This document shows positions 37,312-56,305 of a stretch of DNA of 64,000 nucleotides, one piece after another. The notes under the pieces were generated by a model. It ran no database searches. It was not told the origin of the DNA and worked only from the letters and a program-made list of their open reading frames with translations. The DNA is from Opeltia flavorubescens (taxonomy: Eukaryota; Ascomycota; Lecanoromycetes; Teloschistales; Teloschistaceae): positions 372,001 to 436,000 of the forward strand of contig KE546979.1 of assembly GCA_000442125.1 (NCBI GenBank), written 5' to 3'. A program made the position numbers and the translations under genes. Position 1 is the stretch's first letter; the number at the start of each line of letters is the position of its first letter.

Positions 37312-38115
37312 GTCCAGCATCGGATCGATGGGTATTGAGCAAGGGTCTTGATTTTTTGATTGGACTGCTAAGAAAGGTATATAGTGTTCGTTTGGACATG
37401 GATTCTCTAATGCTGGATTTTGATGTACAGATTCACGGTACCAATTCTTGACAAGCGGAGAGAACGAAAGGCTGGCCCTGGTTATTCAGCGGAATCATTT
37501 ATTTCCATCCAAGTGTATGATAAGATGCACATGAAGCACGATGGGTTCAAGACTACCAATCTTATGCCAGCATACTATAGCCCTCACGCCTGGCGCTGTT
37601 TCCTCGGTTTCGACGTATTGCTTTCGTGGGGATTTATTGCATGTGCATCCCAGTACGCGTAGATAGCGTATCATATCATCCGAAAGCGACACCTTATCTT
37701 GTATCTACTTTTTTCAGAGTTGCCGACAATGACACATGGCGATACCACAATCCGCGTGCGATGTACTCTCTTACCATGGTTCATTCCCAAAACTAACGGT
37801 AAATGCGGGATTTTGCCGTGTGAAATTCTTGCTCACATGTGGAAGAGTATATTACGTGGGAGAAACGTGACACCTTCAAAATTCAAATTCTGTCGATTGC
37901 AGTATACAAGTCAAGATCTCAAAACAAAAGATATCCAACTAAGATTCTCCCACCTCTACAAGCTGCTCCACCTTATACTTTGAAGAGAGGGTAATTACTA
38001 AATTCGAGGGCGTAACAACATACATAGCCGCAATCAGGAACGGAGAGACGTAGGCGCCCGAAAAGGAAAACACGCGTACGTTATAAAGGATTATCCTTTA
38101 GACGAGGAGGAGAAT
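37312..38115. other. spacer before the small-gene array
   Basis: No gene is supported. A 94-codon plus frame at 37699-37983 has no recognisable feature and may be a relic. The promoter of A1 should lie at the right end (about 37990-38115). Confidence 0.4.
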
Positions 38116-38610
38116 ATGTCCGGAACTCTGAATCCTTCTGGTAATGACAATGTCGCGACCTTTGAAACATTTGTAGGCCCTACCAATCCTTGTCGTGTTT
38201 TATTTGCTGATGACGTTTCATTGCTGTAGGAAATCTCCTTGCCCAATTCATCTTATCGCGTATACATCTCGAACAGACACGACAATGATCATCAACCAAA
38301 AGTAATGCAACACAACATTCAACAGTATTGTTATTTCGTCAGCGACTATCATGATCTTCAGCGCCTCCTCACACAAGTTCAACGACAATCAAGCACGAAT
38401 AGAATTCAGACAGTCGATGACGTAAATCTACTTGCGGCAAAGGACTGTTGGGAAAGAGAGTTGGGTGGCCTTGCTTGCAAAGTTGAGGGATGGTTACGAG
38501 AAATGGAAGGACAGGAGTGGAAATTTGTAGCAGCTTTCCCGGAGCGCCTTCGTATCAGATCGATATTTACGGGACAGTTGCAGACATCATCCCCATCATT
38601 TCTTGGGTAA
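38116..38610 (+). CDS. array member A1, small helical protein
   Basis: Exons 38116-38172 (19 codons) and 38230-38610 around a 57-nt intron with GTAGGC donor and CTGTAG acceptor, phase 0; 145 aa. Exon 2 opens EISLPNSSYRVYIS, matching the aromatic-alternating start of other members. The C-terminal helix carries the family pattern in DCWERELGGLACKVEGWLRE. No signal peptide or membrane segment. First plus-strand member after the kinase. Function unknown. Confidence 0.7.
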
Positions 38611-39155
38611 TTCCTTCATCAAGACCTTCGTACAAAGTACTTAAGCTGCGGTCGTTCAAAAGGTAGTACAATCGCATAAGCGGCCCAAGCCTGAGCTGGA
38701 TAGCGAATAGCCTTCCGAGAATACGAGGAATAGAAATATTCAGTGGAGGTGAATGAACTCAAGGATTTACAAGGTTCCTGGTCCGTAAGGTCGGCCTATC
38801 GATTTCTCTTCCCGAAATCTCGCTTATATCATCATAAAGCTTAGAATCTTTTCGTTGCTATAGCATACCTAAGGATAGAACACTTTTGACGCCAGACAGA
38901 CTTCTCCAACCCCGACTTTGCAACTTCGAGCATACATTATCACTGACACATACATCAAAAGCTCAGCCGTACATCGAAGCTCTATTGAATTGTAATGGCA
39001 GAGAACAGTTGGATAGATCGTATGGAAAATGACAAGGATTGTCGCATAGCAAGTACATCCGCGGGTCCCAATCTCCAATTGCTGAAACAGAACAGCTACT
39101 TCACACTAAGTCCTCCACGTATACACTCTACCGCCCTGACGGCACAGTCGCGTCA
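38611..39155. other. spacer A1-A2
   Basis: Probably the A2 promoter and perhaps its unresolved 5' exon. An ATG at 38995 opens a 54-codon frame that is out of frame with A2 and offers no phase-0 donor. Nothing else seen. Confidence 0.35.
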
Positions 39156-39530
39156 ATGAACGATACAGAATCCGGTCCGATCACCACAAAGCTCGATTAC
39201 AACTCCATATGGGTTTATGATCTCTACAATCTCAACGAGCTGCTTAGACGGCGGACGAAAGAAAAGGTATCGCTCAACTGTGGGGAACTGCATACGAAAG
39301 CCATGGAGGAGTGGAGGAGAGAGCTGTGTCACCTTTGTCATGAAGCTTGTTGGTGGAATGTGGAGTTCATGAATATCCGACTAAAGCTATATTTCGGGCA
39401 ACGATGCATTCTCTATCCTGATCAAGTCGCCAGCAGCGACGATTACGTGTGGAAATTGACGGGAGATCGCTTCAGTTGGGCTCCTGTGTCTTCTGAGGAT
39501 TGCGGACGGAACGAATTTGTGATTGAATGA
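39156..39530 (+). CDS. array member A2 (5' end unresolved)
   Basis: Open frame ending at 39530. From ATG 39156 it encodes 124 aa, but the same frame is open further upstream with SSTYTLYRPDGTVASM, which looks like the usual exon-2 opening, so a short 5' exon may be missing (a possible acceptor is CTAAG ending at 39110). The family helix is present as MEEWRRELCHLCHEACWWN, unusually rich in Cys and Trp. The C-terminus after it is longer and more acidic than in other members. Confidence 0.5.
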   Translation: MNDTESGPITTKLDYNSIWVYDLYNLNELLRRRTKEKVSLNCGELHTKAMEEWRRELCHLCHEACWWNVEFMNIRLKLYFGQRCILYPDQVASSDDYVWKLTGDRFSWAPVSSEDCGRNEFVIE

Positions 39531-39818
39531 GTTATTGGAATGATACATACATTATCTGGTGAGGTTTTGTTGCTATCATGCTGAATTAGTACAAACTGCT
39601 TAGCGAAACCAAAAAAGCGGGTTACCATTGTTCGGCCTAAACAAAAAGAAATTAGGTTGAACAAAATTTCGTACTGTCAATACAATATTCCTTAAAATAT
39701 CTCTTTTCTCCTCTCAACGCAAGTACATTTGCCTTGTCGGCTCTTTTCATTCATCCCACTGGCCTTTTCCAACTTGTAGTCACCTTCAAGTCTTTCTCGC
39801 CTGACGTCATTGTTGATA

Positions 39819-40202
39819 ATGGCTACTTCCATCATTGAACCCGCCATTCCAGAAGGAATGCGATTGAAGGATGAGAACGTAAGTTGCTGACCTCTATATC
39901 GAAGTTATTGACGCTTACATCGGGCGAAGGTTAAGATATTGAAGGATTTCATCAGGAACCGTTACTTCGATAAAAGTCAATCAACTACCCCAGAAAGCAA
40001 CCACGACCTCTACAACGACTTCGACTGTATTAGCAGTCTCGTGCGAGCCGTCTTACAACGCACAAGACTCTTACTGACTGCAAATATGGACCAGCCTATG
40101 AATCTGTCGTGGGGTGCAACTGTACTTGATGTTGCTCAGAAGTTGATCTATATCGAAGGACATCTTTTGACAGAACAAAAATCGTCAACACAATGTCGTT
40201 GA
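39819..40202 (+). CDS. array member A3, small helical protein
   Basis: Exons 39819-39878 (20 codons) and 39930-40202 with a 51-nt phase-0 intron (GTAAGT donor, GCGAAG acceptor, attgacg branch-like); 110 aa. Exon 2 begins VKILKDFIRNRYF and ends with the helix LSWGATVLDVAQKLIYIEGH, fitting the W-x(3)-L pattern with K-L. Conserved architecture is the main reason to place it in the family; sequence identity is low. Confidence 0.65.
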
Positions 40203-40527
40203 TAAGATATGAAGACAACGTAACAACTTACGTGGCAAGCACTTATTCTGCCAATTCGGTCTATCAAGGAGCATGAAGTCAACACGCAATGGGTGATGGG
40301 CTGATTCATTACTCTCTATCGTTAGCAAAGTTCTTTGCATACAGTGCTGAAGGCGATTGACTGTCGACATTTACTTAGCATGAGATCTTTGTGTACCTCT
40401 CGAATCTGTGATGTTCTGAATTCAAGTGATGACGTTATCTTCCTGTTCAAATTTGTGGCCTTTACTGGATTGATTTTCACTCTTCACGCCACGCTACTCT
40501 CCAATTTCCCACGGCCTGTAGATCGAG
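40203..40527. other. spacer A3-A4
   Basis: 325 bp that should include the A4 promoter. No gene seen. Confidence 0.4.
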
Positions 40528-40922
40528 ATGCCCGCTCTAATGACTGCAGAGGGAGAAGAGTTGGGAGTATTTGTAAGTTTTCCAGCTAGTTATTCCCGGC
40601 CCCCTACTGAACCGTCCTAAAGCGACTTGATGCCATCCAATGGTACTTTTTCGACTACACCAAGAACCCCCAAGGCGAACGGCGTTTCCATAGCCGGAAG
40701 CAACATTATCATATGTTCCACACTCGGCGACACATCGACGGAACCAAGCGCAGACTAGCCGATCGAGCCATCGTCCCGGACATGTCGGTCGTCGACGATT
40801 CCATTAGACTCAGATGGACAACGGAAGTACTGAAGGTCCTAAAGAAGTTGGATCTGGCTGAGAAGGAGATGGACGAGGCTCAGGTTTGGTGGGAGAAACG
40901 GAATAGGAGATCATGGCAATGA
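40528..40922 (+). CDS. array member A4, small helical protein
   Basis: Exons 40528-40572 (15 codons) and 40623-40922 with a 50-nt phase-0 intron (GTAAGT donor, CTAAAG acceptor, CTACTGAA branch-like); 114 aa. Exon 2 starts RLDAIQWYFFDYTKN, the aromatic motif, then a basic stretch with many His/Arg (RRFHSRKQHYHMFHTRR). The helix LRWTTEVLKVLKKLDLAEKE matches the family pattern. No localisation signal. Confidence 0.68.
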
Positions 40923-41270
40923 TTCGAGTTGCTGTGAGATGGGTGCAAGTGCGGACAGCTCTAAAGCAGGCTTTGTGATGAGGAGGGTGAGGATGGATGT
41001 TAGGATTCGAGGCATAGCCCTCTCATCTTAAGACACATGACAAACTCGAGTAATCAACAATTTAGTCACTTTGAAAACCTTGTTGTATTGCGGATAACGT
41101 GAATTGTACAGGTACCTCGACATCAACACATCACTTCTACTGCGAGATTCTTTTACTGCTGTCGGAAGATCAGATGCTTAAACTATTGGCTCCACTTCCC
41201 TCAACATCTGACTCGAGCCACACTGACTCAGCACTCCATCCGTTACAGCATCATTTATAAACTTGCAGTC
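40923..41270. other. spacer A4-A5
   Basis: 348 bp, promoter of A5 expected at the right. No gene seen. Confidence 0.4.
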
Positions 41271-41633
41271 ATGGAGCATGTCCGTTATGGCTGGGGTTTT
41301 GATAGATGGGTGAGTCGCTCGTTTCCGGCGCACCGAATATCTGCTAAGACAAACAAACAGACATTACGCTCCGAGAGCCTTACCTATGAGTTTAGGTACA
41401 TCAGCTTCTCTGCTAATCGAAAACGCATCGCGCATGATACCGCAATGATGATCAGACTCCGTTCCGAAATCGAAACTCAGATCGAACGACTAAGCCAAAT
41501 TCACAATAACCAAGAATACCTGTCTGAGTGGCGATCGATGTCTAAGGGAATCACGAGCAAACTTGATGGGATCGCTCGTGAGCTGGAGAATATCGCTCAT
41601 AAGTTGGACAATCTCGCTATGGCGGTTGGTTAA
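41271..41633 (+). CDS. array member A5, small coiled-coil protein
   Basis: Exons 41271-41309 (13 codons) and 41361-41633 with a 51-nt phase-0 intron (GTGAGT donor, AAACAG acceptor, GCTAAG branch site); 103 aa. Exon 2 opens TLRSESLTYEFRYIS, clearly akin to TIHSKNFTFRF in A6. The C-terminal 60 residues are a regular heptad-like helix (LRSEIETQIERLSQI) with the family box SEWRSMSKGITSKLDGI and a repeated LDNLA/LENIA end. Confidence 0.75.
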   Translation: MEHVRYGWGFDRWVSRSFPAHRISAKTNKQTLRSESLTYEFRYISFSANRKRIAHDTAMMIRLRSEIETQIERLSQIHNNQEYLSEWRSMSKGITSKLDGIARELENIAHKLDNLAMAVG

Positions 41634-42553
41634 ATGACATTCGGAACAGACACAATGTCGTTATTGGAGAGTCCGAGGAAGGAGGCATGGAGTGCCAATG
41701 AAGATGCAACGAAACTCTGTGTTAAATCCCACGAGCTGCTGGTAGTGCTTACTTTTGTCACTTAGATTTTCATGAACCCAGGTAGTGAATATCATGATTT
41801 GTTGCCTCATTTCAAACAAATCTAAATCGTTCAGTCGTGACCACGATTTCCTTCTAATCCTCCTACATCCGTAGACCCTTTATTCTATAACGTCACAACC
41901 ATATCGAAACCCTGGTATAAAGTCTAAAACGACACGATCGTACGTCTTCCATGATGAAAGGGTTCACTTGATACTAAATAGGGAAACAGGTGCTACTCCC
42001 TGAGAACCTCGCCCCGGAAATCCGCGAAAATCACAATCCCTCCTGCAAACTAGACCCACGTATCTACCTGAACATTCTCCCCTTTTACTGCTTGGACATC
42101 CTGCGGTCCGTTCTCGAAAAGTATGGTCGAATTCAAAAGTACTGTAGCTAAGCCATATGCAGCAACAACAAGAAGAATCAAAACCACTCTAAAGCCCTCA
42201 TTTGATCCGTCAATATGAACGCATACCTCAGCGCGAATTTGATATTTGCTCAATTATCTTGCTATTTCATTACGCCCCCCTTCCATCTCAATCCTGAAGT
42301 AACTTTGATTTTCCAGTCAATCGTTGCGTCTCCACTTACATTATCTATCGACACCCTCTAATTGACTTTTTCTTGCCAGAAAATTCTTCAAGATTCTCAA
42401 CCAATTACATTGTCTTTTCCTTCCTTCTCAAACGTAGATATCAACTGTTCCCTGTTCATTTTCCTCCTCAAGTTTTCCAGCCGACGTGTAAATAGCAAAA
42501 ATCCTACATCACGACAAAGCAGCTTTACTTCTACTCCCTATCGAGACTGAACG
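41634..42553. other. spacer A5-A6
   Basis: 920 bp without a supported gene. A 67-codon minus frame near 42050-42253 has a hydrophobic run, but no splice or family support. The right 200 bp are pyrimidine-rich, as expected of the A6 promoter. Confidence 0.4.
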
Positions 42554-43053
42554 ATGTCGGGAGTAGAGACTGATCAGAACGAAGAAAAGCTTGTCATCGA
42601 CGAGACAAATGAAGAACTTGTATGTACCACATCATCAAAGCGCGAACCGCTCACTGAAAGATACCACAGACCATACACTCCAAGAATTTTACATTCCGCT
42701 TCGGCCACTTTCCATACAGCTGGCTCAGAAATTTCAATCACTTGCAGACTTATTCGAAGGAATGTGCAAGGCTCGAAAGTCATCGCGTGAACATTCAAAA
42801 GCTTCACGCCGAAGTACCATATTACAATTCCGACAAGATCGAGTCACTGGGAGAAGCCAGAAAAGTCTATGAGGAGGAGTTGAACAAAGTGGCTACTCGG
42901 CTTGCTGGAATGGCGGAAGAATTGAACGAAATTGACAGCGTGCGGGAGAGGATATTTAGACAGCATCTGTACCGATTCTTTAACCTCCCACCGACATTAG
43001 ACCTCCCACCGATGCAACGATTGTTCAACATAGCCGACTTATGGATGTTATAA
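42554..43053 (+). CDS. array member A6, small coiled-coil protein
   Basis: Exons 42554-42619 (22 codons) and 42670-43053 with a 50-nt phase-0 intron (GTATGT donor, CCACAG acceptor, CTCACTGA branch site); 149 aa. Exon 1 ends VIDETNEEL. Exon 2 reads TIHSKNFTFRFGHFPYSWLR, then TYSKECARLESHR, then the helix VYEEELNKVATRLAGMAEEL with a Tyr in the Trp position and the tail DSVRERIF. Closest relative in the window is A7, with the same exon-1 wording (DETN) and exon-2 opening. It ends in a Pro/Leu-rich tail. Confidence 0.78.
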
Positions 43054-43867
43054 AGCGGCCTAAGATCAGTGAGGGATGTGTATTACAGCCACAGGCTTGC
43101 AATGTTCTGTAGGACACGGTAGTAGTTCTGTCAATCAATTCAGTACCTGTATTGCTACCCATAAAGCATTGAGCCTTTTCTAGCGCTCATGCAACGTTCC
43201 ATGGCTCGGCTTCTTCGAATTAATTTATGGGTGACCCTAGGAGGGGTTGAAGGGCTAACGTCCTCCTTTCAACTCTTGGCGCCCGGATTTCGATGTACTC
43301 GAGACTCTCTTCCTAGCTCGACGCTCCGTCTGATCCACCCTAGAGCCACGATAATCGGAGCCTCAAGTCTCGAGTGCTTGACTGTGATTGGTGGTGGTCG
43401 GGATGGTGATGGAGATGATCAACTTACTCTATCACCTGCTTTGACCTGTCATAACGACACAATCAATTTTCCAAGCTCGTTCTTTTTCCTTTTGTATGTT
43501 TATGTCGTCCTTCATCTCTAATTTGGTCATGAACCATATATGTAAATTCTTGTCGAACGTCACATTCTTCGGAAGTAAGCACGATCATGTTTTGTATCAA
43601 ACGCCATCCTGCAATCGCGTCACAAAATTACTTTCATTTTTGCAACATTGTTCGCAACTTCCGACATTACCTGACTGACGATCCCGTGGTGCAATTATTT
43701 TCGTGTTGAAAACCCCACTCATTGCCAGACACATCTTCTGCCTCTCAAATATGGGAACTCGATCTTCTTCATACCCCACACTTCTCGTAATCTTGAGTAA
43801 TTTTTCCATTCCGAGAAACAATCAGAGAGAAGTCTACCAAAAACGAGCACCCACAGATCCATCGGTC
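43054..43867. other. spacer A6-A7
   Basis: 814 bp. A 110-codon plus frame at 43189-43521 has no family feature and is not called. The A7 promoter lies at the right. Confidence 0.4.
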
Positions 43868-44288
43868 ATGAATACCATTCAAAAACACGACGAACTTTTT
43901 GTCGACGAAACAAACAAAGAAGTAGTAGGTGCCTCAGTCTCAAGTCGGAGACGATCTACTGACACCATAATAGACAGTCCATACCAAAAATTTTACCTAT
44001 CGCTTCGGCCCTTACCCAACTACACTGTACGGACCTAGCAGCAGCCAAGACGAGGAGACTTACTTCCGAGCATGGAGAAGATTGAGCTCTGTCAGAATGT
44101 CTACTGTGGAGCTTCGCTTGCAAATTGTTTGTACCACATTTTACTACGGTCCAGAACATGAAGCTTGGAAAGTCTGGCAAGAGGAGATGGAAAAGGTTGC
44201 CCGACGATTGGGTGAAATAATGGCGCAGTTGGACAATGTGGAGAAGGTGCGACAGGAGAAATTGTCGGAATTCTTGCTGCGTCCTTGA
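43868..44288 (+). CDS. array member A7, close paralogue of A6
   Basis: Exons 43868-43924 (19 codons) and 43974-44288 with a 49-nt phase-0 intron (GTAGGT donor, ATAATAG acceptor, CTACTGAC branch site); 123 aa. Exon 1 ends FVDETNKEV, exon 2 opens TVHTKNFTYRFGPYP, then ETYFRAWRRLSSVRM, and the helix is KVWQEEMEKVARRLGEI with tail EKVRQEKL. Alignment with A6 runs over the whole length without a large gap, so both genes stem from one tandem duplication. Confidence 0.8.
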
Positions 44289-44552
44289 ATCACCGATAAA
44301 CTATGTCGGTGTTTGGAATGAGCATGTTATGTAGAAAAGGGATGGCATTGTCCCGGGAGTCAGGGTACGAGTTTGGGCCTGTTATGTTGCGTACGGAGTA
44401 GAAAAAGGGGCTTAGGGGCTAGCGTCCCGTGCCGAAATCTTGGCATCCATATCCTCTACGTCACTACATCTACACCTTATCTTCATCATTCTTTTCGTCC
44501 CTCCGCACGTAACAACACCCTCCCATCAACGTCCACCTCCCGGAAAAGAACA

Positions 44553-45137
44553 ATGGAAGACCAACCCCGCCTCTCAGGATCCTCCCACCAATCCCGCGCC
44601 CCCATCCCCAGCCTCAACGAATCCCTCCCCCAATCCCTAAACCCCTCCATCGACCCCTCCTTCATAGACACAACCTCCCCTGAAGAAACCCGCACCTCCT
44701 TCCGCACAACCCAATTATCCTCCGTCCTCCCCGTCATCCAAGCCCGCTACCCATCCATCGAGTCCCTCTACCTCACGAAAATCTTCCGGGGCACAATCGG
44801 CCCTATTGGTCTGATATGGCTCGACATAGGCCGACAGGACGTTTCCCCTTTGGATTTCTCCGACCTACCGCACTTATTATACTGCTTTGAGATATATTGT
44901 CAGATTATATGTATGATGGCGAGTCCTCAAGGGGTGGAAGCGGAGCTGGAATTGCAGCATGCGCTGGCGGAGTATCGCATAAGACTGCTGAAGATCAGTC
45001 ATTGGGCGACGTTTCAGAGTTTGAAGGAGTGGCATGAGGAGGTTTTGAAGGGAAGATTTTGTATGGGGCAGGATGATCCGGATGGGTGGAGGGAGGAGAG
45101 GGCGGATTTGCAGGGGGTGTTGAGAAGGAGGATGTGA
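44553..45137 (+). CDS. array member A8, longer intronless relative
   Basis: Single open exon, 194 aa from ATG 44553; the frame is open upstream without a better start. The first 70 residues are Pro/Ser-rich and probably disordered. A folded-looking core follows (LLYCFEIYCQIICMMAS), then ALAEYRIRLLKISHW and EWHEEVLKGRF, which resemble YNALQEYRILLG and HWTEELGKV of A10. It lacks the intron and is C-biased in its first half, unlike its neighbours, so membership is tentative. The terminal 40 residues are Glu/Arg/Asp-rich. Confidence 0.5.
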   Translation: MEDQPRLSGSSHQSRAPIPSLNESLPQSLNPSIDPSFIDTTSPEETRTSFRTTQLSSVLPVIQARYPSIESLYLTKIFRGTIGPIGLIWLDIGRQDVSPLDFSDLPHLLYCFEIYCQIICMMASPQGVEAELELQHALAEYRIRLLKISHWATFQSLKEWHEEVLKGRFCMGQDDPDGWREERADLQGVLRRRM

Positions 45138-45774
45138 ATTGTAGGGTAGGGATGGTTGGGTGGATATAACAGGTGGAGTTGGAGGGCAATATCAATGTTT
45201 TTTTTCGTAAACTACCATCGAGAGGTGTAGATATACTCGTCTGTGTAAATGGTTTTATATATAGCAGTTAAAGTTCGTTGTCAATCGATACGGATGCAGA
45301 TGAAGCTGTGGTATCGACTTGAAGAAGTCGACGAAGCAGTTGTATACTACAGACAAATACAGCTATGCGGACCAGTAATTCAGATGACCGTGCAACTCAT
45401 GATAGCAGCCGACGTTAACGAAAATGATGTATAATACACCTATCACGCCAGGAACAACTTCTCGACACCTCGAATTCGTACACAGCCAATGCAGGACAAG
45501 GAAGTGATACAAGTCAGACCGCAAAGCGACCCAATCGAAGATCACAGCCATTTCAATCGAAATGATTTATCATATGAAATCGACTAACACATCCATTGCA
45601 ATCAATATAATTGATAATTGATTCAAGCCATATAATGCTAATTGTAATGAATGTTCGTCTGTCATCTGCTCATGACATATGTCCCTAAGCAATCCAGCCA
45701 GATATCACCAAATTGAAGACCATCTCATTCACTATAGAAAATGATCCATATAGCTTCCCAAATGCTCGACCTCC
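45138..45774. other. spacer between A8 and the thaumatin-like gene
   Basis: 637 bp holding two convergent 3' flanks. AT-leaning around 45590-45660. No gene seen. Confidence 0.4.
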
Positions 45775-46744
45775 TCAACAAAGACCGTCCGGGATCTGTG
45801 TTTCATTGTCATAGCCCAGCGAAGCTAGCAGATCGCGTTTGCCATGCTGTTGGCGAGGAGAAGGACAAGGTACCTGGTCACGAACATGAAGTCAGCATTC
45901 ACCGAAGCATCGACCGATGAAATCGATGAACAGTGACCAAGAACTCACCCCGACACAACAAGAGATATCTCCCGCATCACACTTCCCAAACCCATTGGCC
46001 GTGTGGTCATTTGGATAGGTGTATGCCGCCCCTTGACAAGGTTGGAAGAAGTCGTCCGCTGGTCCATTGATGACATTCTTTTGGGGATTGTAGCAGATGA
46101 CGCGATCACCGGGGCCCTGGTTCTTGCAGACGCGACCGGTGCGAAAGAGGGGGATGTTGCAGCCTGTGACAGCAACTCCGGAGCAGGAACAGGTGATGGG
46201 GATGCCGTAACCGTCAACATAGGATACGTCGACACCAGGACGATAATTACCCTCGGGGGAAAAGGAGACTTCGATCTTGGAATTGGCAGGGTCGTAGGTT
46301 TTGCCTATAAAGATGGCACCTACCTCAAGAGTCAGCGAGATCAATGAGAACATAGGTTGAGAAGGGCAAGGATCGAGTCTCACCGGCAAAATTGCGCGGA
46401 AGTGCGAGGTTAGTGCTCTGCGCACGTCGGAAAGTGCCTGCACCAGGATTGCCAATTATGGTGGGGGAGCCTTGATTCGAGTTGTATGAGATTGGAAGAT
46501 CAAAGCCAAAGCTGTTGGTAATTCTGACTGTCAATTGGTCGGCATCCAACTCATTGGCTCTCTGAGCTTGATCAGGAGCTCCAGTGGGCTCAGGCATGTC
46601 AAGTGCACCTCCCATAGCAGTGCCATAGGTGTAGGATGTATAGGATGGAGCGGGCATTGGAGAACCACGGCGAATGAGAGGGCGGATAGCCAAGGCAGGA
46701 GTAAGGCTCAGAGCCATTGCGGCAAAGCGAGGAAAGAGAACCAT
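45775..46744 (-). CDS. Secreted thaumatin-like protein
   Basis: Exons 46744-46384, 46319-45949 and 45873-45775, 276 aa, phases consistent. A signal peptide (FAAMALSLTPALA) precedes a Pro/Ser/Thr linker and the thaumatin-like domain. Family landmarks are VRITNSFGFDLPISYN, DVSYVDGYGIPITCSCSGV, VTGCNIPLF, FFQPCQGAAYTYPND and DISCCVG, with many cysteines available for disulfides. Fungal members can act on beta-glucan or be surface proteins. The exon-3 extension (VPCPSPRQQHGKR) rests on a GTGAGT/GACCAG intron; without it the frame ends at 45892. A separate gene lodged inside the small-gene array. Confidence 0.85.
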
Positions 46745-47723
46745 TGCAATGAGTAGTCTCTCAACGGTTTAGTAGGTTTGATCTGTTAGAGGCAAAGCAA
46801 TCATGCAAGACTGATGCAGATATAGAGGGAGGACGGCACTGATCAAAGGATAGAATTGGAAGCTCTGGCGTGAAATGAGATGATGTGAAGGCAAATGAAG
46901 GACTGTGATGACAGTGTAAGATCGTCAATTGGATCAGTAGCTTGAGCTAATCTTATGGGTTTCAATGAATGAAATCAAGCAAGAAGCAGGTCTTTATCTG
47001 CTATCGGAGCTGAGTTTGAGAAGGGAGATTGCAAGGAGGGAGCAGAGCATTGGTGTTGAGAAAGATGGGCATGATCACGGTTTTCAATGGCTTGGCAGAA
47101 TAGTCCGAGGTTTTCATTCAGTCTCAATGCTTCCCCACCGCCATTTCAATTAAGGAACACAAGATACTCCAGCCCACTCGATCATGTTAAAGAGATTAGA
47201 TGCTGACAGCAGATTGTAAAGCTAGGACAACCTTTGCTTGCTACACGCGAAGGAAGAAATTCACAGGCTTACCCATAGACCAAGCTGGAAACGCATGTCT
47301 TCTTCTCTCTCCTTGATCTGGCGTTCGCTAGATCAAGCCATATCAATGGACAAGGTTACTCCACAGTAGCCATGTAGCCAGTGATTAGTATACTTACCAT
47401 GGTCTTTATGATGCAACTTAGTCAGGAAGGTGGAATCTCGTTACTTAATGTCCAATGCTTGACGAGCTCTACTTGTCTTACTCTGGAGACAGATCACTTT
47501 CCATGCATAACGAATATCGTAGCTTACCACTTGTAGGAAAAAAAATTGGGAGACACTTGATTAATTTCAAATAGACGATCAGTTGCCGCGCGGCAGCTGG
47601 CGGTAGCTTTTGCCATTCATCCAAACGTCATGAGGGGGAAAGGCCTCTAGAATCTGGACTTGTAGTGCCAGTCTCCTTCGCGATGGCGTCAGACAGTTTC
47701 ACATCAGAAGTTAGCGAACATAA
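46745..47723. promoter_or_regulatory. divergent promoter region, thaumatin-like / dehydrogenase
   Basis: 979 bp between divergent genes. Short frames near 46965-47153 show no domain. It carries both promoters. Confidence 0.4.
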
Positions 47724-48905
47724 ATGTCTCCCAGTACAATTCATGACGTGCGACGACTGTATAGGATCGCCTCGATCCCCGCAGACGGCATCGGGTCTGA
47801 AGTCATCAGCGCTGGAATCCAAGTCCTGAACAAGCTTGCGTCTGTCTTGGGGCAGTTTGAATTTCACTTCGAGCATTTTGATTGGAGCAGTGAGACCTAT
47901 AAGAATACTGGCCAATACATACCCAAGGGAGGATTGGAATCGTTGAAGGAATACAACGCCATCCTTTTCGGCGCTGTGGGGGACCTAGGTTCGTGTCTCC
48001 AATCCAAATCAACTTCATTCGAGCTTCGATGCTGACATGAAATAGAGGTCCCTGATCATGTATCACTCTGGGGCCTCCGACTAGCGATATGCCAGCCCTT
48101 CCAACAGTATGCGAATCTCCGGCCAACTCGTGTCCTTCGCGGTACCTCGTCCCCGCTTCGCAATTGTCCTCCTGGAAGCCTAGGCTGGCTCATCGTCCGT
48201 GAGAATACCGAGGGAGAATATGCCGGTCAAGGAGGCCGAACACACGTTGGCAAACCATGGGAGGTTGCAACAGAGGTGGCCATCTTCAGCCGACACGGTG
48301 TGGAGCGTTTGATGAGGTTCGCTTTCGATTGTGCAAGGAGGAGGACCAGAAAGAAGATCACGGTCGTCACAAAGAGTAACGCTCAAAGGAATGGTTTGGT
48401 TCTGTGGGACGAAGTAGCGGCTGCTGTAGCGAAGGATTTTCCCGATGTCGAGATGGACAAGATGCTTGTAGATGCCATGACCGTGCGCATGGTCTTGCAA
48501 CCCGAGACCCTCGACACTATTGTTGCGACCAATCTTCACGCGGACATTTTGAGCGACTTGGCTGCTGCGCTTGCTGGCAGTATTGGCATCGCTCCGACGA
48601 GTAATTTGGATCCAAGTCGGGAGCATCCTAGCATGTTCGAGCCGATCCATGGCAGTGCTTGGGATATTGCTGGAAAGGGCATTGCAAACCCAGTCGCAAC
48701 CTTCTGGACTGCTGCGGAAATGGTGAGGTGGCTTGGACATCAGGAAGCTGCAGATAGCTTGATGGAGTGCGTGGAAAATGTCTGCGAAAGTGGGATCAAA
48801 ACAAAAGATCTGGGAGGTTCGGCAAGAACGAGCGAGGTTACGGAGGCTGTCTGCAATGAGATCGAAACAGTCCTTGGGCCTAGAGGCAAGAGCATCATTC
48901 ACTAG
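47724..48905 (+). CDS. D-malate/tartrate-type (isopropylmalate dehydrogenase family) NAD dehydrogenase
   Basis: Beta-decarboxylating dehydrogenase family, nearest to D-malate/tartrate dehydrogenases (DmlA/TtuC) by eye. Exons 47724-47988 and 48046-48905 (57-nt intron, phase 1), 374 aa. Landmarks: IASIPADGIGSEVI at the N-terminus, AILFGAVGDL, the substrate loop IVREN-TEGEYAGQ, KITVVTKSNAQRNG containing the catalytic lysine, the metal-binding DAMTVRM and LHADILSDLAAALAG Asp residues, and MFEPIHGSAWDIAGKG with the NAD-binding GSAxDIAG. No mitochondrial presequence. Leucine-biosynthesis LeuB is less likely, given the N-terminus and TEGEYA form. Confidence 0.85.
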
Positions 48906-49362
48906 GCAGCGACCTCAGCTGAATGCTAGACTATTCAGTATCATTTGTTCTAGGTGGTGAATCCTTCTACTTGTGTGCACTCTGATCTTTTTTCTGCCTC
49001 CATATCGATCTCGCTTGCGTTCTGTTCCTATCCTTTGTTGGCTGCGCATGTAATCGAAGTGCCAAGAAGCTGCTTCTCTAGTGATATGCTACGCCTATTT
49101 AACTTTTATATGGCGACCGTACTCACTGTCATTATCAACTCCTCCATTTGGTTGGAATGGTGGGTCGTGCACCTGCCTTGTCCTTCTACAATGAGACAAG
49201 AGCCTCCCAAATCCCTTGTAGTCAACTCTTATGACGGGTGTTCATTGGTTTCTCTGTCTAATGATATGTACAAGGAACTCATGCTGCATCATTGTGATCT
49301 AGTTCGTCATGAATTTTAGCCATCGCTTTCCTTCACCCTTGTGAAAAGCTCCGAGAAATTCT
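48906..49362. other. spacer between dehydrogenase and A9
   Basis: 457 bp with two convergent 3' flanks. A 121-codon plus frame here has a hydrophobic stretch but overlaps the dehydrogenase end and is not called. Confidence 0.4.
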
Positions 49363-49763
49363 TCAATGCCCAATGTCAAAGGTTGCATCAAAGATATCCC
49401 ACAACTCTAGCTTCAAGTCCGAGAGCTTATGAAATAAAACTGATAGAGCCTGCTCCCAATGCCTGTCTTCTGCGCAGTTGCTTTCGTCCCATTTGATAAT
49501 TTGGTCACGGATTCCAGCACGGAGTAATCCGATGTCATCTATTTTAGATGAGATACTGTTGGATATCGACATCAGATCGTCAAAGTCTATCGGCAGGAAC
49601 GGAAGATTGATTGCGTTACGGTCAGGGAAGCTAAAGGTGAAATTCGAAGTTGTATAAGTCTATTATCTTGTTAATAGGTCATTTACTCCTATTGAAGGTG
49701 ACTTGGTCAAGGACGTGCCACTGTACTATTCTCCCTCGAGACTACGACGGATGTCTCGCACAT
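49363..49763 (-). CDS. array member A9, small helical protein
   Basis: Exon 2 is 49659-49363 (ATAATAG acceptor) and opens TYTTSNFTFSFPDRN, one of the clearest matches to the A6/A7 exon-2 motif. The helix is RHWEQALSVLFHKLSDLKLE with an acidic, aromatic tail. Exon 1 starts at ATG 49763; two phase-0 donors are possible, GTGGCA (exon 14 codons, 62-nt intron) or GTAGTC (6 codons), so product length is 104-112 aa. First of the minus-strand members. Confidence 0.65.
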
Positions 49764-50604
49764 GGCTGTTGCTGATCGGTTTGGTAGTGTGTCGATTTGG
49801 CAAATCTGGCTTTGCAACGAAGAGGAGGTCTGATCTGAATGGTGCGGGGAAAAGCTGGGATTAAATTCTTCAGTAAGGCGTTCACTTGTGAAGTGAAATG
49901 AAAAAATTTACAACCCTCTGTTTGGACACTCATTGACCAGTACCCGTTACGTCATGTCAAGACCATGGGCTCACAAGTAGCGTGTTCACAACTATGATGT
50001 AGTCTCTCCAACACGATCTTCCACCCGTTTAGCAAAACCAGTTAAAAGCCTTTTTGAATGTACAGAGGGCGGAAGTCATTCGGAAGCCAAGGAGCCTAAA
50101 GCGATATTCAAAATGCTAGCTTCATGACGATCGGACAAAAGACCTGGCCAAGACGATGACATTTTTCGAGCCTAGTGCTTTTCGTATGCATCACTACCAA
50201 TTTCATGATTACAGTCTTTGTAATTTCGAACCGAAGACATTAACATCCCTGCATGTCATGACATTGAAAAGATCGAGAAGCTGCACTACGAACCAGGGAT
50301 ATGAGGAGAGAACAGTATCCTCAAACGCATAGCTTTACCAGAAGTCGATCGCTCTGGATATGGGACGGCCTTTTCAAATAGACAAATATTAAGGGAGGAG
50401 GAGAATCCAACATTCATCTAGGATGACAGCATCTTTGGAATGGAGAAGGCTTTCAGACAAATACATTGTCTCTGGCTTTGAAGTGTGAAAAGCAGCCCAA
50501 TCCCAACACACCAAACCCAAAATTATGTTTGACTTTTCAAGTCTCTCTTTGAATGCTAACCTCGCTGACCCTCTAAAGTAGAAGCCATAGACACCACAAT
50601 CTCG
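49764..50604. other. spacer A9-A10
   Basis: 841 bp, including the A9 promoter. No gene seen on either strand. Confidence 0.4.
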
Positions 50605-51034
50605 TCAGAAGTCGTCCCTAGCTTTCTTAACCCTCTTCAACATATCCTCCACCTTGATCATGACCTTCCCGAGCTCCTCCGTCCAGTGTTTCATTGCTGC
50701 ATGATCGTTAGGGCTCCCTTGCATGACCGCCGACCGAAGTTTAGAATCCCTAGCTCGGATCCCTAGAAGGATACGATATTCTTGGAGGGCATTGTATCGT
50801 TCATGATGAAACTTGTCGAGACGGTTATGAGTTATCTCGCCCCACATTTTTAATCGGTACAGAGCCTCCCATCGATCGAATGGATAAGGAGGGTGAGTGA
50901 GTTGATATCCGTGATAGAGACCTTGCCGGTCGTAAATCTATCTTAACATCAGCTGAAGTGGTAGTCTTTGAGACTGTGAGTGTTACCATGTTTCCGTTAC
51001 AGTCGTAGTAAATTGAGGAGGTATTGGAAGCCAT
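50605..51034 (-). CDS. array member A10, small coiled-coil protein
   Basis: Exons 51034-50987 (16 codons) and 50937-50605 with a 49-nt phase-0 intron (GTAACA donor, AGATAG acceptor, AGCTGATG branch-like); 126 aa. Exon 1 is MASNTSSIYYDCNGNM; exon 2 opens IYDRQGLYHGYQL, continues with FHHERYNALQEYRILLG and ends in the helix KHWTEELGKVMIKVEDMLKR with tail KKARDDF. No targeting signal. A strong representative of the family pattern. Confidence 0.78.
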
Positions 51035-51908
51035 GATAGTTACTGGATCTTTGTTTCCGAATGGTTTATTGCAGGTATGTGAACGATATCTTAGATACGT
51101 GAAAAGACGGAGGTGTGAATCTTTCAAAGTAGTTAATGACATCGTCAGTAACAAATACAAGGAAACCCATTTCCGCTAATCGATACTGTTGAGAACTATA
51201 ATGCTGTCAACAGTTTCTTGTTTAAATGTCTTATGCACAACAGAATGTTTGGACACAAACCATAGGACTGGCCATGAGAATAAAGTATTGTTATTATCTA
51301 ATGTTCAATGTATACATGCCCATCTCAATCCGACTCAGCTGGCCTAGACGGACTCACGATTTTTTAGAGGCACGTGCAAGCTTAATGACATTAGGGAAAT
51401 GGACATCGATTCAACGATTACCCGGACTTTCATTCGGCGGTCTTACAAGTACAATGTCATATTCGGCACATATTTTAATTTGAGCTGCACCTACTCGGAA
51501 AACTTTTCGAAGCTACAAGGGCCAGTGTTGGTCCTCGAGTAAGAGAAGATGTCGTTTGGCGTCAATACAATCGACTAATTTGAGAGGAACGAAAAATCCA
51601 GGTCATGATAGAAACGGTAGCCAAAGCCCTTTTTCATTATGGAGTGGTTCTCAAAATGTATCAATCCCCCAGTTTCTACCATTTGAAAGCAGTGAACGTT
51701 TTGGACGCAAGACAACCACCAGTCTCTTGTCGATTGCTATTCTCCTAATTCTTACCATCAGGGCCACATCATTAATTTCCAATTCTTAGGCAATTCTTCC
51801 AATGTAAAGATCCTCAGGGTTTATGATACAAAGACGGCTTCCTTTGATAGAAATAGCACCTTGGCTGCCACAGTAACGACCATCTAGTCGTACCATTGAT
51901 CGCATCGT
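51035..51908. other. spacer A10-A11
   Basis: 874 bp. Plus-strand frames at 51226-51483 and 51556-51789 lack the family motif and splice plan; they may be relics. The A10 promoter lies at the left. Confidence 0.4.
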
Positions 51909-52498
51909 TTATTGGATAATCTTGTCCAAGAGATCACTCATCTCCATCTGAAGACGACCAATCTTCTCTTTCAAATCCTCCATTGCCTCGCGCCAGATCA
52001 TTTCCGGCGGACTGATGCCAAAAGCCGCGAGATCGCATTGATTGCTGATGATTGCCCAAAGTTCCGAAACATTCTCGTAACATTTCCTCGCTCTCTTGAT
52101 TTTCGCTTGGTTGGACAGCATACGACACCTTTCCTCCGCGGCTGAATAGGATGGATTATAGGGATCCTTCGAACTCAATTCGTAGAAGGTGAAAACAAAA
52201 TTTGGTGAGCGCATCATCTAGAGCGCGTGTCAGTGAGCATCACGACGCAACGAAGTCTGTTAAGGGAACTCACCGTTCGACCTTTGCCCTTCTTACAGAT
52301 GTGCTTGACTTCGATGGGGTTGGACGCTTTCTGTGATTTTCGTCGGGTTTGTAGCGAGAAGAAGTCATCGTCCAGCTTTTGTTTTCTATCCCAGTGGAGT
52401 GATTCGCGCAATAAGGTGAGATCATAAGCTTCGTCAGGACCCATTTTAGTATCTTGAAACGTCCAAACTTTAGAAGTTGTCAAGTTGAAAGATTCCAT
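51909..52498 (-). CDS. array member A11 with an enlarged first exon
   Basis: Exons 52498-52274 (75 codons) and 52217-51909 with a 56-nt phase-0 intron (GTGAGT donor, CTCTAG acceptor); 177 aa. Exon 1 is much longer than in the other members and basic at its end (HICKKGKGRT). Exon 2 opens MMRSPNFVFTFYELSS, the aromatic motif, then a Cys-containing middle and the helix MIWREAMEDLKEKIGRLQME. The intron sits at the same place relative to the motif as in the short-exon members. Confidence 0.75.
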
Positions 52499-52810
52499 TG
52501 CTGTACTTGACTATGACGCATGAGATCTATTAATTAGGTGGATAGGCAAGGCAGATGACTTCGACAGTTTCTGCAAAATCCACGGTAACTTCATTCATCC
52601 ATGAACGCTATTGGAAGAATGCTGGAATTTGGTATCTTATTCATTGTCTCAATCTGCTATGGCATGAAGCTGTTAAGGTTCCAGGACAGTAGTAAGCCGG
52701 CTAAACATGATTTCATTGGCAAGAAGTAATCATAAGAAGACACCCATTCAATCGATAGCCAGAAGCCTTGCCAATCATACTTTCGTGCCATCTACTGCCA
52801 CTGCTGTGAT
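52499..52810. other. spacer A11-A12
   Basis: 312 bp with the A11 promoter and A12 3' flank. No gene seen. Confidence 0.4.
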
Positions 52811-53236
52811 TTAAATTTCTCCAGGACAGACGCACCAGCGTGACAGATCTGTAACGGTGGCTCGTTGACGGACCGAGGGTTGATGTTTCAACAGAACCAT
52901 CCTGATCGTTAACTTCGCCACCTCGCGGCGGAAGAAGAGGCTCCAAGGATCATCCCGTCCGCTCGCCCACAGCGCCCGGGACAGTTCAAGGAGAGCTGAG
53001 CGCAGTCTGCTGATGCCATCCAATTCTCTTCTGTACCGGTCGTTGCGTTCTCGCTCATCATTCAGAAAGTTATTGCTGATGTCTTGACGGATGGGTCCTG
53101 CTGGACAATGGACAGGAGTTGAGGGATTGCTGAAGAGCTGTTTGTGCGATCAGTACTGGTCTTACTCCTTGTTGTTGAGCTTGGGGAATACCATGACGTG
53201 GAAGGGCTTCGTAGGGTCTTGTTGTATGCTAGCCAT
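52811..53236 (-). CDS. array member A12, small helical protein
   Basis: Exons 53236-53192 (15 codons) and 53137-52811 with a 54-nt phase-0 intron (GTATTC donor, AAACAG acceptor); 123 aa. Exon 1 is MASIQQDPTKPFHVM. Exon 2 opens LFSNPSTPVHCPAGP, has DERERNDRYRRELDGISRLR, parallel to DEREDRYAKYHASIQDLL in A15, and a helix SLFFRREVAKLTIRMVLL where Phe replaces the Trp. The C-terminal 25 residues are basic. Confidence 0.7.
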
Positions 53237-53963
53237 GGTAATGGGGTCGGACCAGCTGCTTCGATTGGAGTAGTGGACTTGGTGACAACAAGAGCTAAGG
53301 GTCAAGTATTTATCACATTAAATCGACGGGTAAGGGCTGTCAATGTTCTTGTGGTTGAGTGCGCACGATCTTGGCCTCAAGTAGAAATGTTGAATTATGT
53401 GATGAAGATGGATTTGTCAGCCTTATTGTTGTCTCATTTGGACCGCTTCGTCGAAACAATTGTTGTCCATGAGCGTCTGCTACAGGATTAGGACTGAATC
53501 ACTTCATCATCTCTCAATAGAGGTATCGATACGCGGAATGATGATTTCAGCTTCATTTTGTGCTATTCTAGAGTCTCTCCGGTATCGAGCGCCAGCTTTC
53601 CGTGGCATCTCCGATGACAAGAGCAACCACATGAGTTAACGGACTGGGACTTACGAGTGGCCATTTGGCTCTTCGATAACGGTGGAAATGTTTCTAGAGC
53701 AGAAAGCCTCCTCGGAAATGACTTCTCTTCAAGTGGATTGTGCGAGACGAAGATGATCGAGTTATGCGGGTATCGAAATACTTGCATTGCTATTTTCATC
53801 ATCACTAGAATCAGATACATTTGGCTCATCTCCGGAGTCCCTCTCGAGTGGACCGTTTTCAATATCCCGACATGTATAAGTCAATAGTGTATGCAGGATT
53901 CGTCTCCTTATTTGTTGATCTTGGTAGGTTGCACCGGACCCAGAGGGTATGTGAAGCTGCGCA
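53237..53963. other. spacer A12-A13
   Basis: 727 bp with the A12 promoter near the left. A minus-strand 77-codon frame (53995-53762, acidic, Ser/Asp-rich) overlaps the end of A13 in another frame and is left uncalled. No family motif is seen elsewhere here. Confidence 0.4.
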
Positions 53964-54451
53964 TCACCAGTATCCTCCTCCCCAGCCGAACCCATGTCCT
54001 AGAGTACTGAAATCCAATCCGCACCCACGGGCCGAAAACAATTTATTCAAATATTCCCCATCTCCACCATAAGCTTTGCGTATCTCCTTTTGCATGCTTA
54101 TGTGCTCTTTTAGGCAACTCTCGACTTTGTGAACGAGATCCACCATGTGATGGCCCCATTCAGCTTGAGCTGCATTATTCGCTTCAATTGGGCCACATCG
54201 TGCTCGGAGCTGTAAGTATAGTTTCTTGAGACTCCATTGAGTACTACTGAAGTCGCGCAAAGACACCTGATTATCGTAGTAGTTCTCGGTGCCAGGGCGA
54301 GCATTTCTGTACATAACATAACGGAACATTGCTGAAGATATAATCTTTGAGAAAGATATCGTTAGCAACAATCCGAATGCTCGTTTCATAGTACTGGGAA
54401 GATCTGTACCACTTTGTCTCTACGTTCAATAGCGACAGTCGGGCGTGACAT
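53964..54451 (-). CDS. array member A13, helical protein with Gly-rich tail
   Basis: Exons 54451-54410 (14 codons) and 54344-53964 with a 65-nt phase-0 intron (GTACAG donor, GCTAACG branch site, CTCAAAG acceptor); 140 aa. Exon 1 is MSRPTVAIERRDKV; exon 2 opens IISSAMFRYVMYRNARP and has the helix AEWGHHMVDLVHKVESCLKE. Unlike the others it ends in a Gly/aromatic tail (GHGFGWGGGYW). Read without the intron, the frame would start at an ATG inside the intron and look like a hydrophobic leader (MKRAFGLLLTISF). The branch site argues for splicing. Confidence 0.7.
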
Positions 54452-54969
54452 ATTGAAATTTTAGAACGTTTTTTTTCCGTAGAGTGCTATATCGTTGCCG
54501 GATACAGTATCGTGCCTAGCAAAGCGGAAGGTGAACCTATTACATCAGCAAGGGGGCGATATTATGATGGTCGTACACAATATCTACAGATTAAACCAGA
54601 CAGAATCTCCAAGGATCTGCGCTGTCAAGAAACACGGGCTTCCCAGTATATCAGCTAAATTAAAACCCTCACAAAATGGTGGCTATTTTCAGTCCCTTGC
54701 TAAGTTGATAAGGTAATCTGTAAGTTCGAGCAATCCTTTCCAGCTGAAAACAACACACTGCGATAGGTTACCGAGACTTGACATCCGCGGGTGATGCTCA
54801 TAATTCCATGGTACTCGAGAGCAATATCGCTCACTGCAACCACGTGTCCCATGTGAGTCACAAACATGCATACTTTCTATGCTCTATATTTCCTCCATAT
54901 CGCAGCCATGAAATCGCCACCAAGATATCCCCAGCTTCACATCTGATCTAAAATAACCACGCTTAAGTT
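54452..54969. promoter_or_regulatory. divergent promoter region A13/A14
   Basis: 518 bp between the last of the minus-strand run A9-A13 and plus-strand A14. No gene is supported. Confidence 0.4.
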
Positions 54970-55389
54970 ATGAGCATCCATAATGTCAGCGGCCCAACAT
55001 GGCAAGAAACAACTACAGTCGTGAAAACCAAACGTCCCTCCATGTTCACAGAAGGCCCCGTCACCAAACGACCGCGCCGTATACATGTCGTCTCTTCACC
55101 AACCTTCAGTTACGAAATCCCAATAGTTCCGAGACCACGACGTCGTAACCTCGCCCAGGCTAGACTGATTGCATATGACGAACATTGTAGCAAGTATCGT
55201 GACGACGTAGAAGAAATTCGGGGTATGATCGCGGGACTCCGATGGCGACTGGCTAAGATTGATCTGACTGATCCTAGCAAGACTCTGTGGGTGCATGGAT
55301 TGAGGAATTTGATAAGAAGGGCACTCGGGTGGCTGAAGGAGCTCAGAGATTTGAAGAAGCCTATTCAAGATGCTCTGACGAATTGGTAG
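54970..55389 (+). CDS. array member A14, small basic helical protein
   Basis: Open single exon, 139 aa. N-terminal MSIHNVSGPTWQETTT resembles the exon-1 leaders; then a basic segment (VTKRPRRIHVV) and SSPTFSYEIPIVPRPRRR, the aromatic motif. The helical part runs YRDDVEEIRGMIAGLRWRL and TLWVHGLRNLIRRALGWLKE. No convincing phase-0 intron was found at the expected place, so the gene may have lost it or may be misread there. More basic than the other members. Confidence 0.68.
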   Translation: MSIHNVSGPTWQETTTVVKTKRPSMFTEGPVTKRPRRIHVVSSPTFSYEIPIVPRPRRRNLAQARLIAYDEHCSKYRDDVEEIRGMIAGLRWRLAKIDLTDPSKTLWVHGLRNLIRRALGWLKELRDLKKPIQDALTNW

Positions 55390-55560
55390 TCATGGAGATT
55401 GTGAAGAGGCTTCGGGTGGAGAAGACATTGCATGTGACAGGGTTGGCTTGAAACATCATCATTTTAACCGGTCATCTACACAAAGACGCCATTTCAAATA
55501 CTTCGAGCAGATCAATACGAAGTCTTTCCAGATCACCGATACACATTCATTGTCCTCAAC

Positions 55561-55985
55561 ATGACTACCAACGATCCAGTCATCGCGGGATGGCAAGATC
55601 AGAACCCTCTGGTAAGTCTCACCGGTTCTTTCAAAGGGAAGTTCATTGAGGACTGCCACTAAGAGGACAAAAGTATCGTCAAATCATTCCCCCAAACTTC
55701 CAGAAGAAGATCGGTTTTCTGGACCCCGAAATCCTCAACTCTGATTCTCCCGGGGAGTTGTACGATGAACGAGAGGACCGTTACGCTAAATATCACGCTT
55801 CCATCCAGGACTTGTTGTCATTTCTCCGAGCTCAGCTATCGAGGGTAGATCCAAAGGATGCCACTTTGGTCGCTTGGCGGGAGGGGATGGAGAAACTACT
55901 TGAGAAAGTGGAAGGCTTACGCGAAGAAGTCATGGAAATCAGAATTATTGTCTGGGATGCTTTCCTTGCGTCTTTCAGGTATTAG
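55561..55985 (+). CDS. array member A15, small coiled-coil protein
   Basis: Exons 55561-55611 (17 codons) and 55674-55985 with a 62-nt phase-0 intron (GTAAGT donor, CACTAAG branch site, CAAAAG acceptor); 120 aa. Exon 1 is MTTNDPVIAGWQDQNPL; exon 2 opens YRQIIPPNFQKKIGF, has DEREDRYAKYHASIQDLLSF and SRVDPKDATLV, and shows the cleanest family helix, AWREGMEKLLEKVEGLREEV, with tail MEIRIIVWDAF. A good query for a profile of the family. Confidence 0.8.
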
Positions 55986-56305
55986 GCCGAAAGATCACCG
56001 GTTATTCTCGAAATTTGCTTGGGCATTGTGCTACAGTCTGCAGAGAGAGTTGGTAACATTGACATAGTGCTATAAAGCTATGATATCTCGGCACCATGAT
56101 CTTTCCAGTTCCGATGAGGATTTCGTCCTACGAGCTTAACATAGTCCTGTCAGAATTTCAAGATCAAATCCGTAGCAGAAGCCCAAATCAATGCTTCTGC
56201 CTTCGCGCTCCACCTAGTTCTGTGTCCTAGTGATCCATTTTTCTTCCTGCTTATCCCACTCATCCTCTCGAATCAATGGCCGGCCCTCTCGATTTCCCAT
56301 TGTAA
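55986..56305. other. spacer A15-B1
   Basis: About 320 bp of 3' flank. No gene seen. Confidence 0.35.

What the first reader, a model, noticed from the sequence alone, without database searches (positions are those of the whole stretch)
38116..55985. Array of about 15 diverged small helical-protein genes of an apparently undescribed family
Between the FHA-kinase and 56 kb nearly every gene is a short protein (mostly 103-177 aa) with the same C-terminal amphipathic helix, seen directly in all 15 with small variations: WERELGGLACKV (A1), WRSMSKGITSKL (A5), WQEEMEKVARRL (A7), WEQALSVLFHKL (A9), WTEELGKVMIKV (A10), WREAMEDLKEKI (A11), WGHHMVDLVHKV (A13), WREGMEKLLEKV (A15). Identity outside this box is low, so the copies are old or fast-evolving. 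No known domain is recognised. A birth-and-death gene family in one locus suggests conflict or recognition (allorecognition, element defence, host interaction); that last step is inference.
Basis: partly seen in the sequence, partly recalled or inferred. Interest (0 to 1): 0.9.

Follow-up and report, generated by a model that had tools for sequence, protein, structure and literature searches.

The report
Old tandem family of coiled-coil genes
A stretch of a fungal chromosome carries fourteen old, distantly related small genes that appear to encode helical-hairpin proteins of one unrecognised family; the family looks real, but what it does is unknown and cannot be shown from this sequence alone.

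Summary
Fourteen small genes, not fifteen, between 38116 and 55985 form one family. With each member left out in turn, a profile of the other 13 ranks it above all 887 non-member reading frames of the window; 9 of 14 have E < 0.01 and beat 45,050 shuffled decoys. AlphaFold2 predicts two long antiparallel helices for the two members tried. The box is a heptad helix with an aromatic anchor and a near-invariant Lys/Arg. No Pfam, PDB or Foldseek match is significant. A8 (44553-45137) is not a member. Nothing recent was seen: no shared DNA repeats, near-saturated or incalculable dS, no convincing decayed copy. This is an old tandem family; ongoing birth-and-death and the conflict reading are not supported. 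Most likely they are intracellular binding modules (inference). Fungal proteomes could not be searched, so 'undescribed' is unproven.

The parts
38116..38610 (+). A1, 145 aa, exons 38116-38172 and 38230-38610
   Evidence: model; leave-one-out E 4.6e-6
39108..39530 (+). A2, second-exon frame; start unresolved (ATG 39156 gives 124 aa; an upstream exon from 38995 is possible)
   Evidence: leave-one-out E 0.78, weak but above all non-members
39819..40202 (+). A3, 108 aa, exons 39819-39878 and 39936-40202 (alternative acceptors exist)
   Evidence: leave-one-out E 0.22
40528..40922 (+). A4, 114 aa, exons 40528-40572 and 40623-40922
   Evidence: leave-one-out E 0.017
41271..41633 (+). A5, 103 aa, exons 41271-41309 and 41361-41633; C-terminal helix contains a 21-nt (one-heptad) tandem repeat
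   Evidence: leave-one-out E 2.4e-4
42554..43053 (+). A6, 149 aa, exons 42554-42619 and 42670-43053; box begins with Tyr
   Evidence: leave-one-out E 2.2e-9
43868..44288 (+). A7, 123 aa, exons 43868-43924 and 43974-44288; nearest relative of A6
   Evidence: leave-one-out E 4.4e-8; AF2 model pLDDT 90.7
49363..49763 (-). A9, 112 aa, exons 49763-49722 and 49659-49363 (donor GTGGCA is weak)
   Evidence: leave-one-out E 0.052
50605..51034 (-). A10, 126 aa, exons 51034-50987 and 50937-50605
   Evidence: leave-one-out E 4.1e-6
51909..52498 (-). A11, 177 aa, exons 52498-52274 (75 codons) and 52217-51909
   Evidence: leave-one-out E 0.04
52811..53236 (-). A12, 123 aa, exons 53236-53192 and 53137-52811; box begins with Phe
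   Evidence: leave-one-out E 0.0019
53964..54451 (-). A13, 140 aa, exons 54451-54410 and 54344-53964
   Evidence: leave-one-out E 0.0021
54970..55389 (+). A14, 139 aa, no intron needed
   Evidence: ORF; leave-one-out E 6.8e-5
55561..55985 (+). A15, 120 aa, exons 55561-55611 and 55674-55985 (alternative acceptors exist)
   Evidence: leave-one-out E 8.7e-10; AF2 model pLDDT 84.2
44553..45137 (+). 194-aa frame inside the array (taken to be A8): tested and NOT a family member
   Evidence: no Pfam

Best explanation
An old tandem array of 14 homologous genes, most with two exons, encodes small, soluble proteins with no recognisable secretion signal or membrane segment. The conserved domain is a predicted antiparallel hairpin of two long helices. 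The second helix has a coiled-coil heptad core opened by an aromatic residue (usually Trp) and a near-invariant basic residue just before a core position. No residue is invariant and no enzyme-like site is seen, so I infer binding modules: hairpins that pair with each other or with partner proteins, with paralogues differing in surface and charge (pI 4.4-10.6) and therefore in partner. Shown: family, heptad pattern, divergence. Predicted: gene structure and fold. Inferred: binding, pairing and intracellular location.
For: Leave-one-out profiles, 14 of 14 above all non-members. Profile against 177,635 distinct PDB sequences: best 16.3 bits, E 0.087, the listed hits being mostly helical proteins, while 7 of 14 left-out members score 17.6-34.8 bits; the profiles differ slightly. 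Phase-0 intron in 11 of 14 against 12.1% of 957 controls; phases 1 and 2 in 2 and 0 of 14 against 14.3% and 4.2%. Codon-use score of the second exons best in the predicted frame in 13 of 14. AF2 helix pairs 26-57/63-102 and 24-57/63-102, mean pLDDT 84 and 91. Heptad positions 0,7,14,21 and 4,11,18 hydrophobic in 11-14 of 14, Lys/Arg at +10 in 13 of 14, Glu at +17 in 10 of 14. Maximum 19-residue hydropathy at most 1.01.
Against: A2 and A3 join only weakly. Before the box similarity is thin: mean pairwise Z 0.58 against 0.10 +/- 0.21 (maximum 0.57) in 20 control sets; 5 of 91 pairs above Z 3 against a control mean of 2.2 and maximum of 8. Amphipathic helices can look alike by convergence. Gene models rest on sequence alone. 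No binding partner, expression or localisation evidence exists; hydropathy is a crude test for signal peptides.
Confidence: 0.5

Rival explanations
1. The array is a recognition or conflict locus (allorecognition, element defence or host interaction) in which diverged paralogues are the variable determinants.
For: One-locus tandem family with strong divergence and charge diversity; no curated family.
Against: No sign of recent turnover; A6/A7 dN 0.60, dS 2.20 points to constraint; no toxin, nucleotide-binding or HET domain in the 9 neighbouring ORFs or fragments scanned by Pfam at E <= 0.01 (other flanking genes were not scanned). Selection between isolates untested.
Confidence: 0.15
2. Ordinary lineage-specific orphan family: tandem duplicates kept by weak constraint, with dispersed minor roles.
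For: Adjacent genes more alike, low overall conservation (mean column identity 19%), no functional hallmark.
Against: Reading frames, splice position and heptad core survive near-saturating synonymous change, which suggests real constraint.
Confidence: 0.27
3. Not one family: unrelated small proteins with convergent amphipathic helices.
For: Weak A2 and A3 scores and thin similarity before the box.
Against: Shared phase-0 intron, neighbour similarity, A6/A7 33% identity at tblastn E 7e-13 and A14/A15 25% at 2.5e-6, and the profile beating all 887 non-members for each left-out member.
Confidence: 0.05
4. Effector-like proteins that act outside the cell or in a host after export by an unconventional route (not exclusive of the binding-module reading).
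For: Small, diverged, tandem.
Against: No strongly hydrophobic N-terminus (maximum 11-residue hydropathy starting in the first 35 residues 1.50, in A13); few cysteines (0-6); fold search finds only weak helix matches.
Confidence: 0.08

Closest known systems
Generic two-helix antiparallel hairpins in the PDB (Get1 cytosolic domain, EsxA/WXG100 proteins, CHMP4B hairpin)
   Same: Two long antiparallel helices; these appear among the 50 Foldseek rows shown per search.
   Different: No match with E <= 0.001 for either model; sequence identities 11-19% in those rows; no shared motif. A resemblance of shape only.
Pfam helical families met as weak hits (Sec10_N, Snapin_Pallidin, ATG1-like_MIT1, Allexi_40kDa)
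   Same: Helical composition.
   Different: Each hits one member of 14 at E 0.0098-0.057, and all are far below their cut-offs (13.8-15.9 bits against 22.5-29.6); no family is shared between members.
Tandem arrays of lineage-specific orphan genes in fungi (general kind, recalled)
   Same: Clustered diverged paralogues of unknown function.
   Different: Well-known fungal arrays (recalled) encode secreted effectors or membrane proteins; these look neither secreted nor membrane-bound and share a heptad hairpin and a phase-0 intron.

Membership tests
The array's own family | Each left-out member outranks non-members under a profile of the rest | tested here: met
   14 of 14 above all 887 non-member frames; 9 of 14 E < 0.01
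The array's own family | Short first exon and phase-0 intron before the conserved domain | tested here: met
   11 of 14 under fixed criteria, control 12.1%; A11 has a phase-0 model with a longer exon 1; A2 and A14 lack it
The array's own family | Shared block at the start of exon 2 | tested here: inconclusive
   8 of 14 with empirical p < 0.02, 6 of 14 not (p 0.21-0.96)
The array's own family | Common fold | tested here: inconclusive
   Helical hairpin predicted for the two members modelled, of 14
Any Pfam-A family | Score above the curated cut-off | tested here: not met
   0 of 14 second-exon proteins; 4 of 14 have any hit at E <= 0.1, best 15.9 bits against a cut-off of 26
Solved structures | Significant sequence or fold match | tested here: not met
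   best E 0.087; 0 Foldseek matches with E <= 0.001 for either model
WXG100/ESAT-6-like proteins | W-x-G motif in the turn between two helices (recalled) | tested here: not met
   The residue two after the box Trp is Gly in 0 of 14
Fungal secreted effectors | N-terminal signal peptide | tested here: inconclusive
   No strongly hydrophobic N-terminus by hydropathy (highest 1.50 in A13 and 1.25 in A9); no dedicated predictor was run
Allorecognition genes | Allelic variation controlling compatibility between isolates | not testable with these tools
   One isolate only; no genome held

The most novel reading that the evidence does not exclude
The array is a combinatorial set of pairing coiled-coil hairpins: paralogues with different surfaces and charges form specific homo- and heteropairs, and the set acts as an intracellular recognition or identity code in the fungus.
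Probability: 0.1. Interest if true: 0.85.

Novelty: new variant of a known kind. Interest (0 to 1): 0.5.

Why it matters
Small diverged gene families are easily missed by annotation because members share little sequence. Here a profile, a splice position and a heptad rule define one precisely enough to search fungal genomes. If the hairpins pair selectively, the locus would be a natural set of diverged coiled-coil specificities in one genome; if isolates differ in it, a candidate recognition locus.

Tried and rejected
Rejected: A8 as a member; the 57063-57518 helical gene as a member (hhalign probability 0.1%); further members in the window (none convincing among 901 segments; best non-member 6.2 bits, E 0.65); a first impression that 40297 holds an orphan box (not among the 12 best non-member boxes printed for each length); transposon-like repeats as duplication agents (none found).

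Left open: shared promoter words. Of 1,631, 2,986 and 3,719 words of 6, 7 and 8 bases tested, only the best 8 of each length were printed. Four 8-mers occur in 3 of 14 upstream regions with nominal p 1.8e-6, but this rests on a pseudocount for an empty background, so I do not count it as a finding. Weak tblastn matches inside the array outside known members, such as a broken frame at 51147-51242 (E 0.05), are no better than matches elsewhere in the window (E 0.034 at 14127-14192), so I do not call them decayed copies.

Led nowhere: relatives of A7 in viral contigs (9 pattern matches, 0 confirmed) and of the A6/A7 pair in the prokaryote genome collection (195 pattern matches, 0 confirmed), as expected for a fungal family; the BFVD fold search (0 matches with E <= 0.001; best row an uncharacterised protein of a Nitrosopumilus virus, E 0.17, probability 0.99, TM 0.67/0.63, not followed); eight literature searches, of which only the listings and abstract openings were seen (three were cut: 12 of 16, 10 of 16 and 10 of 31 papers listed) and none shown appears to describe such a family; no paper was opened. 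The YN00 dN/dS method failed for all four pairs and NG86 dS was incalculable for two of four.

Biases: members were first chosen by eye on the box, so box scores are inflated; the intron test with fixed criteria is less exposed. I hand-picked the splice models and hand-aligned the blocks. Alignment columns for A10 and A12 before the box are uncertain. In one search only the top 4,000 non-member positions were rescored. The confidences of the rivals are not exclusive of each other and do not sum to one.
Full report
Setting. The window is taken to be nuclear DNA of a filamentous fungus: intron-containing gene models, a fungal rhodopsin domain at 60113-60835 (PF20684, E 8e-18) and a fungal-kinase hit beside the array. 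The species is not known and no genome is held. Long frames that look like core genes (by eye and recall) occupy much of the left half; the array lies between a protein kinase at about 35.5-37.3 kb (PF00069, E 5.7e-19) and the rhodopsin-domain gene.

Is the family real? I modelled the genes and tested them by leave-one-out. A profile of 13 members was searched against 901 stop-to-stop frames of the window (40 aa or longer) and 45,050 shuffled frames. All 14 left-out members came above every non-member frame; nine had E < 0.01 and no decoy as good (A1, A5, A6, A7, A10, A12, A13, A14, A15); A4, A9 and A11 had E 0.017-0.052 with 1-4 decoys as good; A3 (0.22, 14 decoys) and A2 (0.78, 56 decoys) are weak. 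Because shuffling destroys heptads, a harder control matters: the full-family profile against 177,635 distinct PDB sequences found nothing better than 16.3 bits, E 0.087, while seven left-out members score 17.6-34.8 bits.

Evidence independent of the box. Under fixed criteria (exon 1 of 10-25 codons, intron 45-70 nt, donor GTR, open frame), a phase-0 model exists for 11 of 14 members, phase 1 for 2, phase 2 for 0; at 957 sampled control positions the rates are 12.1%, 14.3% and 4.2%. With stronger donors it is 7 of 14 against 6.1%. Control positions overlap and are not independent. In the hand-made models, 12 of 14 have one phase-0 intron of 49-65 nt. Exon 2 often opens with a block such as TIHSKNFTFRFG; 8 of 14 are recognised by the others at empirical p < 0.02 and 6 are not. 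Neighbouring genes are more alike than random pairs (p = 0.0024; 0.025 on ranks; 0.021 with the A6/A7 pair neutralised), the mark of tandem duplication. Codon use of the second exons favours the predicted frame in 13 of 14 (A12 is the exception).

Limits. Similarity before the box is thin (mean Z 0.58 against 0.10 +/- 0.21 in 20 control sets, whose maximum was 0.57; 5 of 91 pairs above Z 3 against a control mean of 2.2 and maximum of 8). Box-only tests weaken when the box is shortened: with 12 residues 6 of 14 are unbeaten, and A5 and A14 are beaten by 326 and 90 positions. A8 at 44553-45137 does not join, so the count is 14.

What the protein is. AlphaFold2, given the 14-row alignment, predicts two long antiparallel helices for A15 (pLDDT 84.2, pTM 0.67) and A7 (90.7, 0.79), in A7 with a short strand pair from the exon-2 block; the antiparallel packing is my reading of two helices joined by a short turn. 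Across members, the second helix has Trp (12), Tyr or Phe at 0; hydrophobic residues at 4, 7, 11, 14, 18 and 21 in 11-14 of 14; Lys/Arg at +10 in 13 of 14; Glu at +17 in 10 of 14; the periodicity peak is at 100 degrees. That is a heptad core (d = 0, 7, 14, 21; a = 4, 11, 18) with charged g positions, my reading. A5 carries a 21-nt tandem repeat, one heptad, in this helix (41571-41618). No column of the 14-row alignment is invariant. No membrane helix or clear signal peptide shows by hydropathy. pI spans 4.4-10.6.

Age. No direct repeat family of 24 bases or more was found in 37400-57000. A6/A7: protein identity 36% over 97 columns, dN 0.60, dS 2.20; A14/A15: dN 0.82, dS incalculable; A13/A14: dN 0.93, dS 1.76; A13/A15: dN 0.69, dS incalculable. 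Third codon positions are the least conserved in three of these four pairs, not in A13/A14. No convincing decayed copy was found by profile, tblastn or box scan; a broken-frame tblastn match at 51147-51242 (E 0.05) is within the noise of the same search. So duplication looks old and the survivors constrained; 'birth-and-death' in the sense of active turnover has no support here.

Known families. No Pfam family reaches its cut-off for any of the 14 second-exon proteins; four members have hits at E <= 0.1, the best 15.9 bits against a cut-off of 26. There is no significant PDB sequence match, Foldseek PDB match (A15 and A7 models) or BFVD match (A7 only). Eight paper searches listed nothing that appears to describe it (listings and abstract openings only, three of them cut). 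Since no fungal proteome collection was available, absence from print or databases is not established.

Mechanism. Without invariant or catalytic-looking residues, and with a conserved core under a variable surface, I judge a binding or pairing hairpin most likely, inside the cell. This step is inference. The recognition reading stays possible but untested.

Noticed in passing
57060-57518 (-): A 152-aa frame, probably helical by eye, with good codon-use score, no Pfam match and no relation to the array profile.
   Followed up: partly
about 58060-58320 (-): Another frame that looks helical (ELQAIIERTNAYSSALYRLSDL...), read by eye only.
   Followed up: no
45892-46744 (-): Two-exon, cysteine-rich protein with a hydrophobic N-terminus, thaumatin-like by recall; Pfam finds nothing in the joined frame.
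   Followed up: partly
47724-48905 (+): Isocitrate/isopropylmalate dehydrogenase-like gene in two exons splitting the array (PF00180, E 7.3e-71 and 1.9e-12).
   Followed up: partly
   Followed up: partly
41571-41618 (+): 21-nt tandem repeat, 2.3 copies, in A5: exactly one heptad, suggesting helix length may change by heptad duplication.
   Followed up: no
1-2000: AT-rich left edge (GC 0.39) with TpA/ApT 1.02, unlike the rest of the window (0.37-0.78).
   Followed up: no
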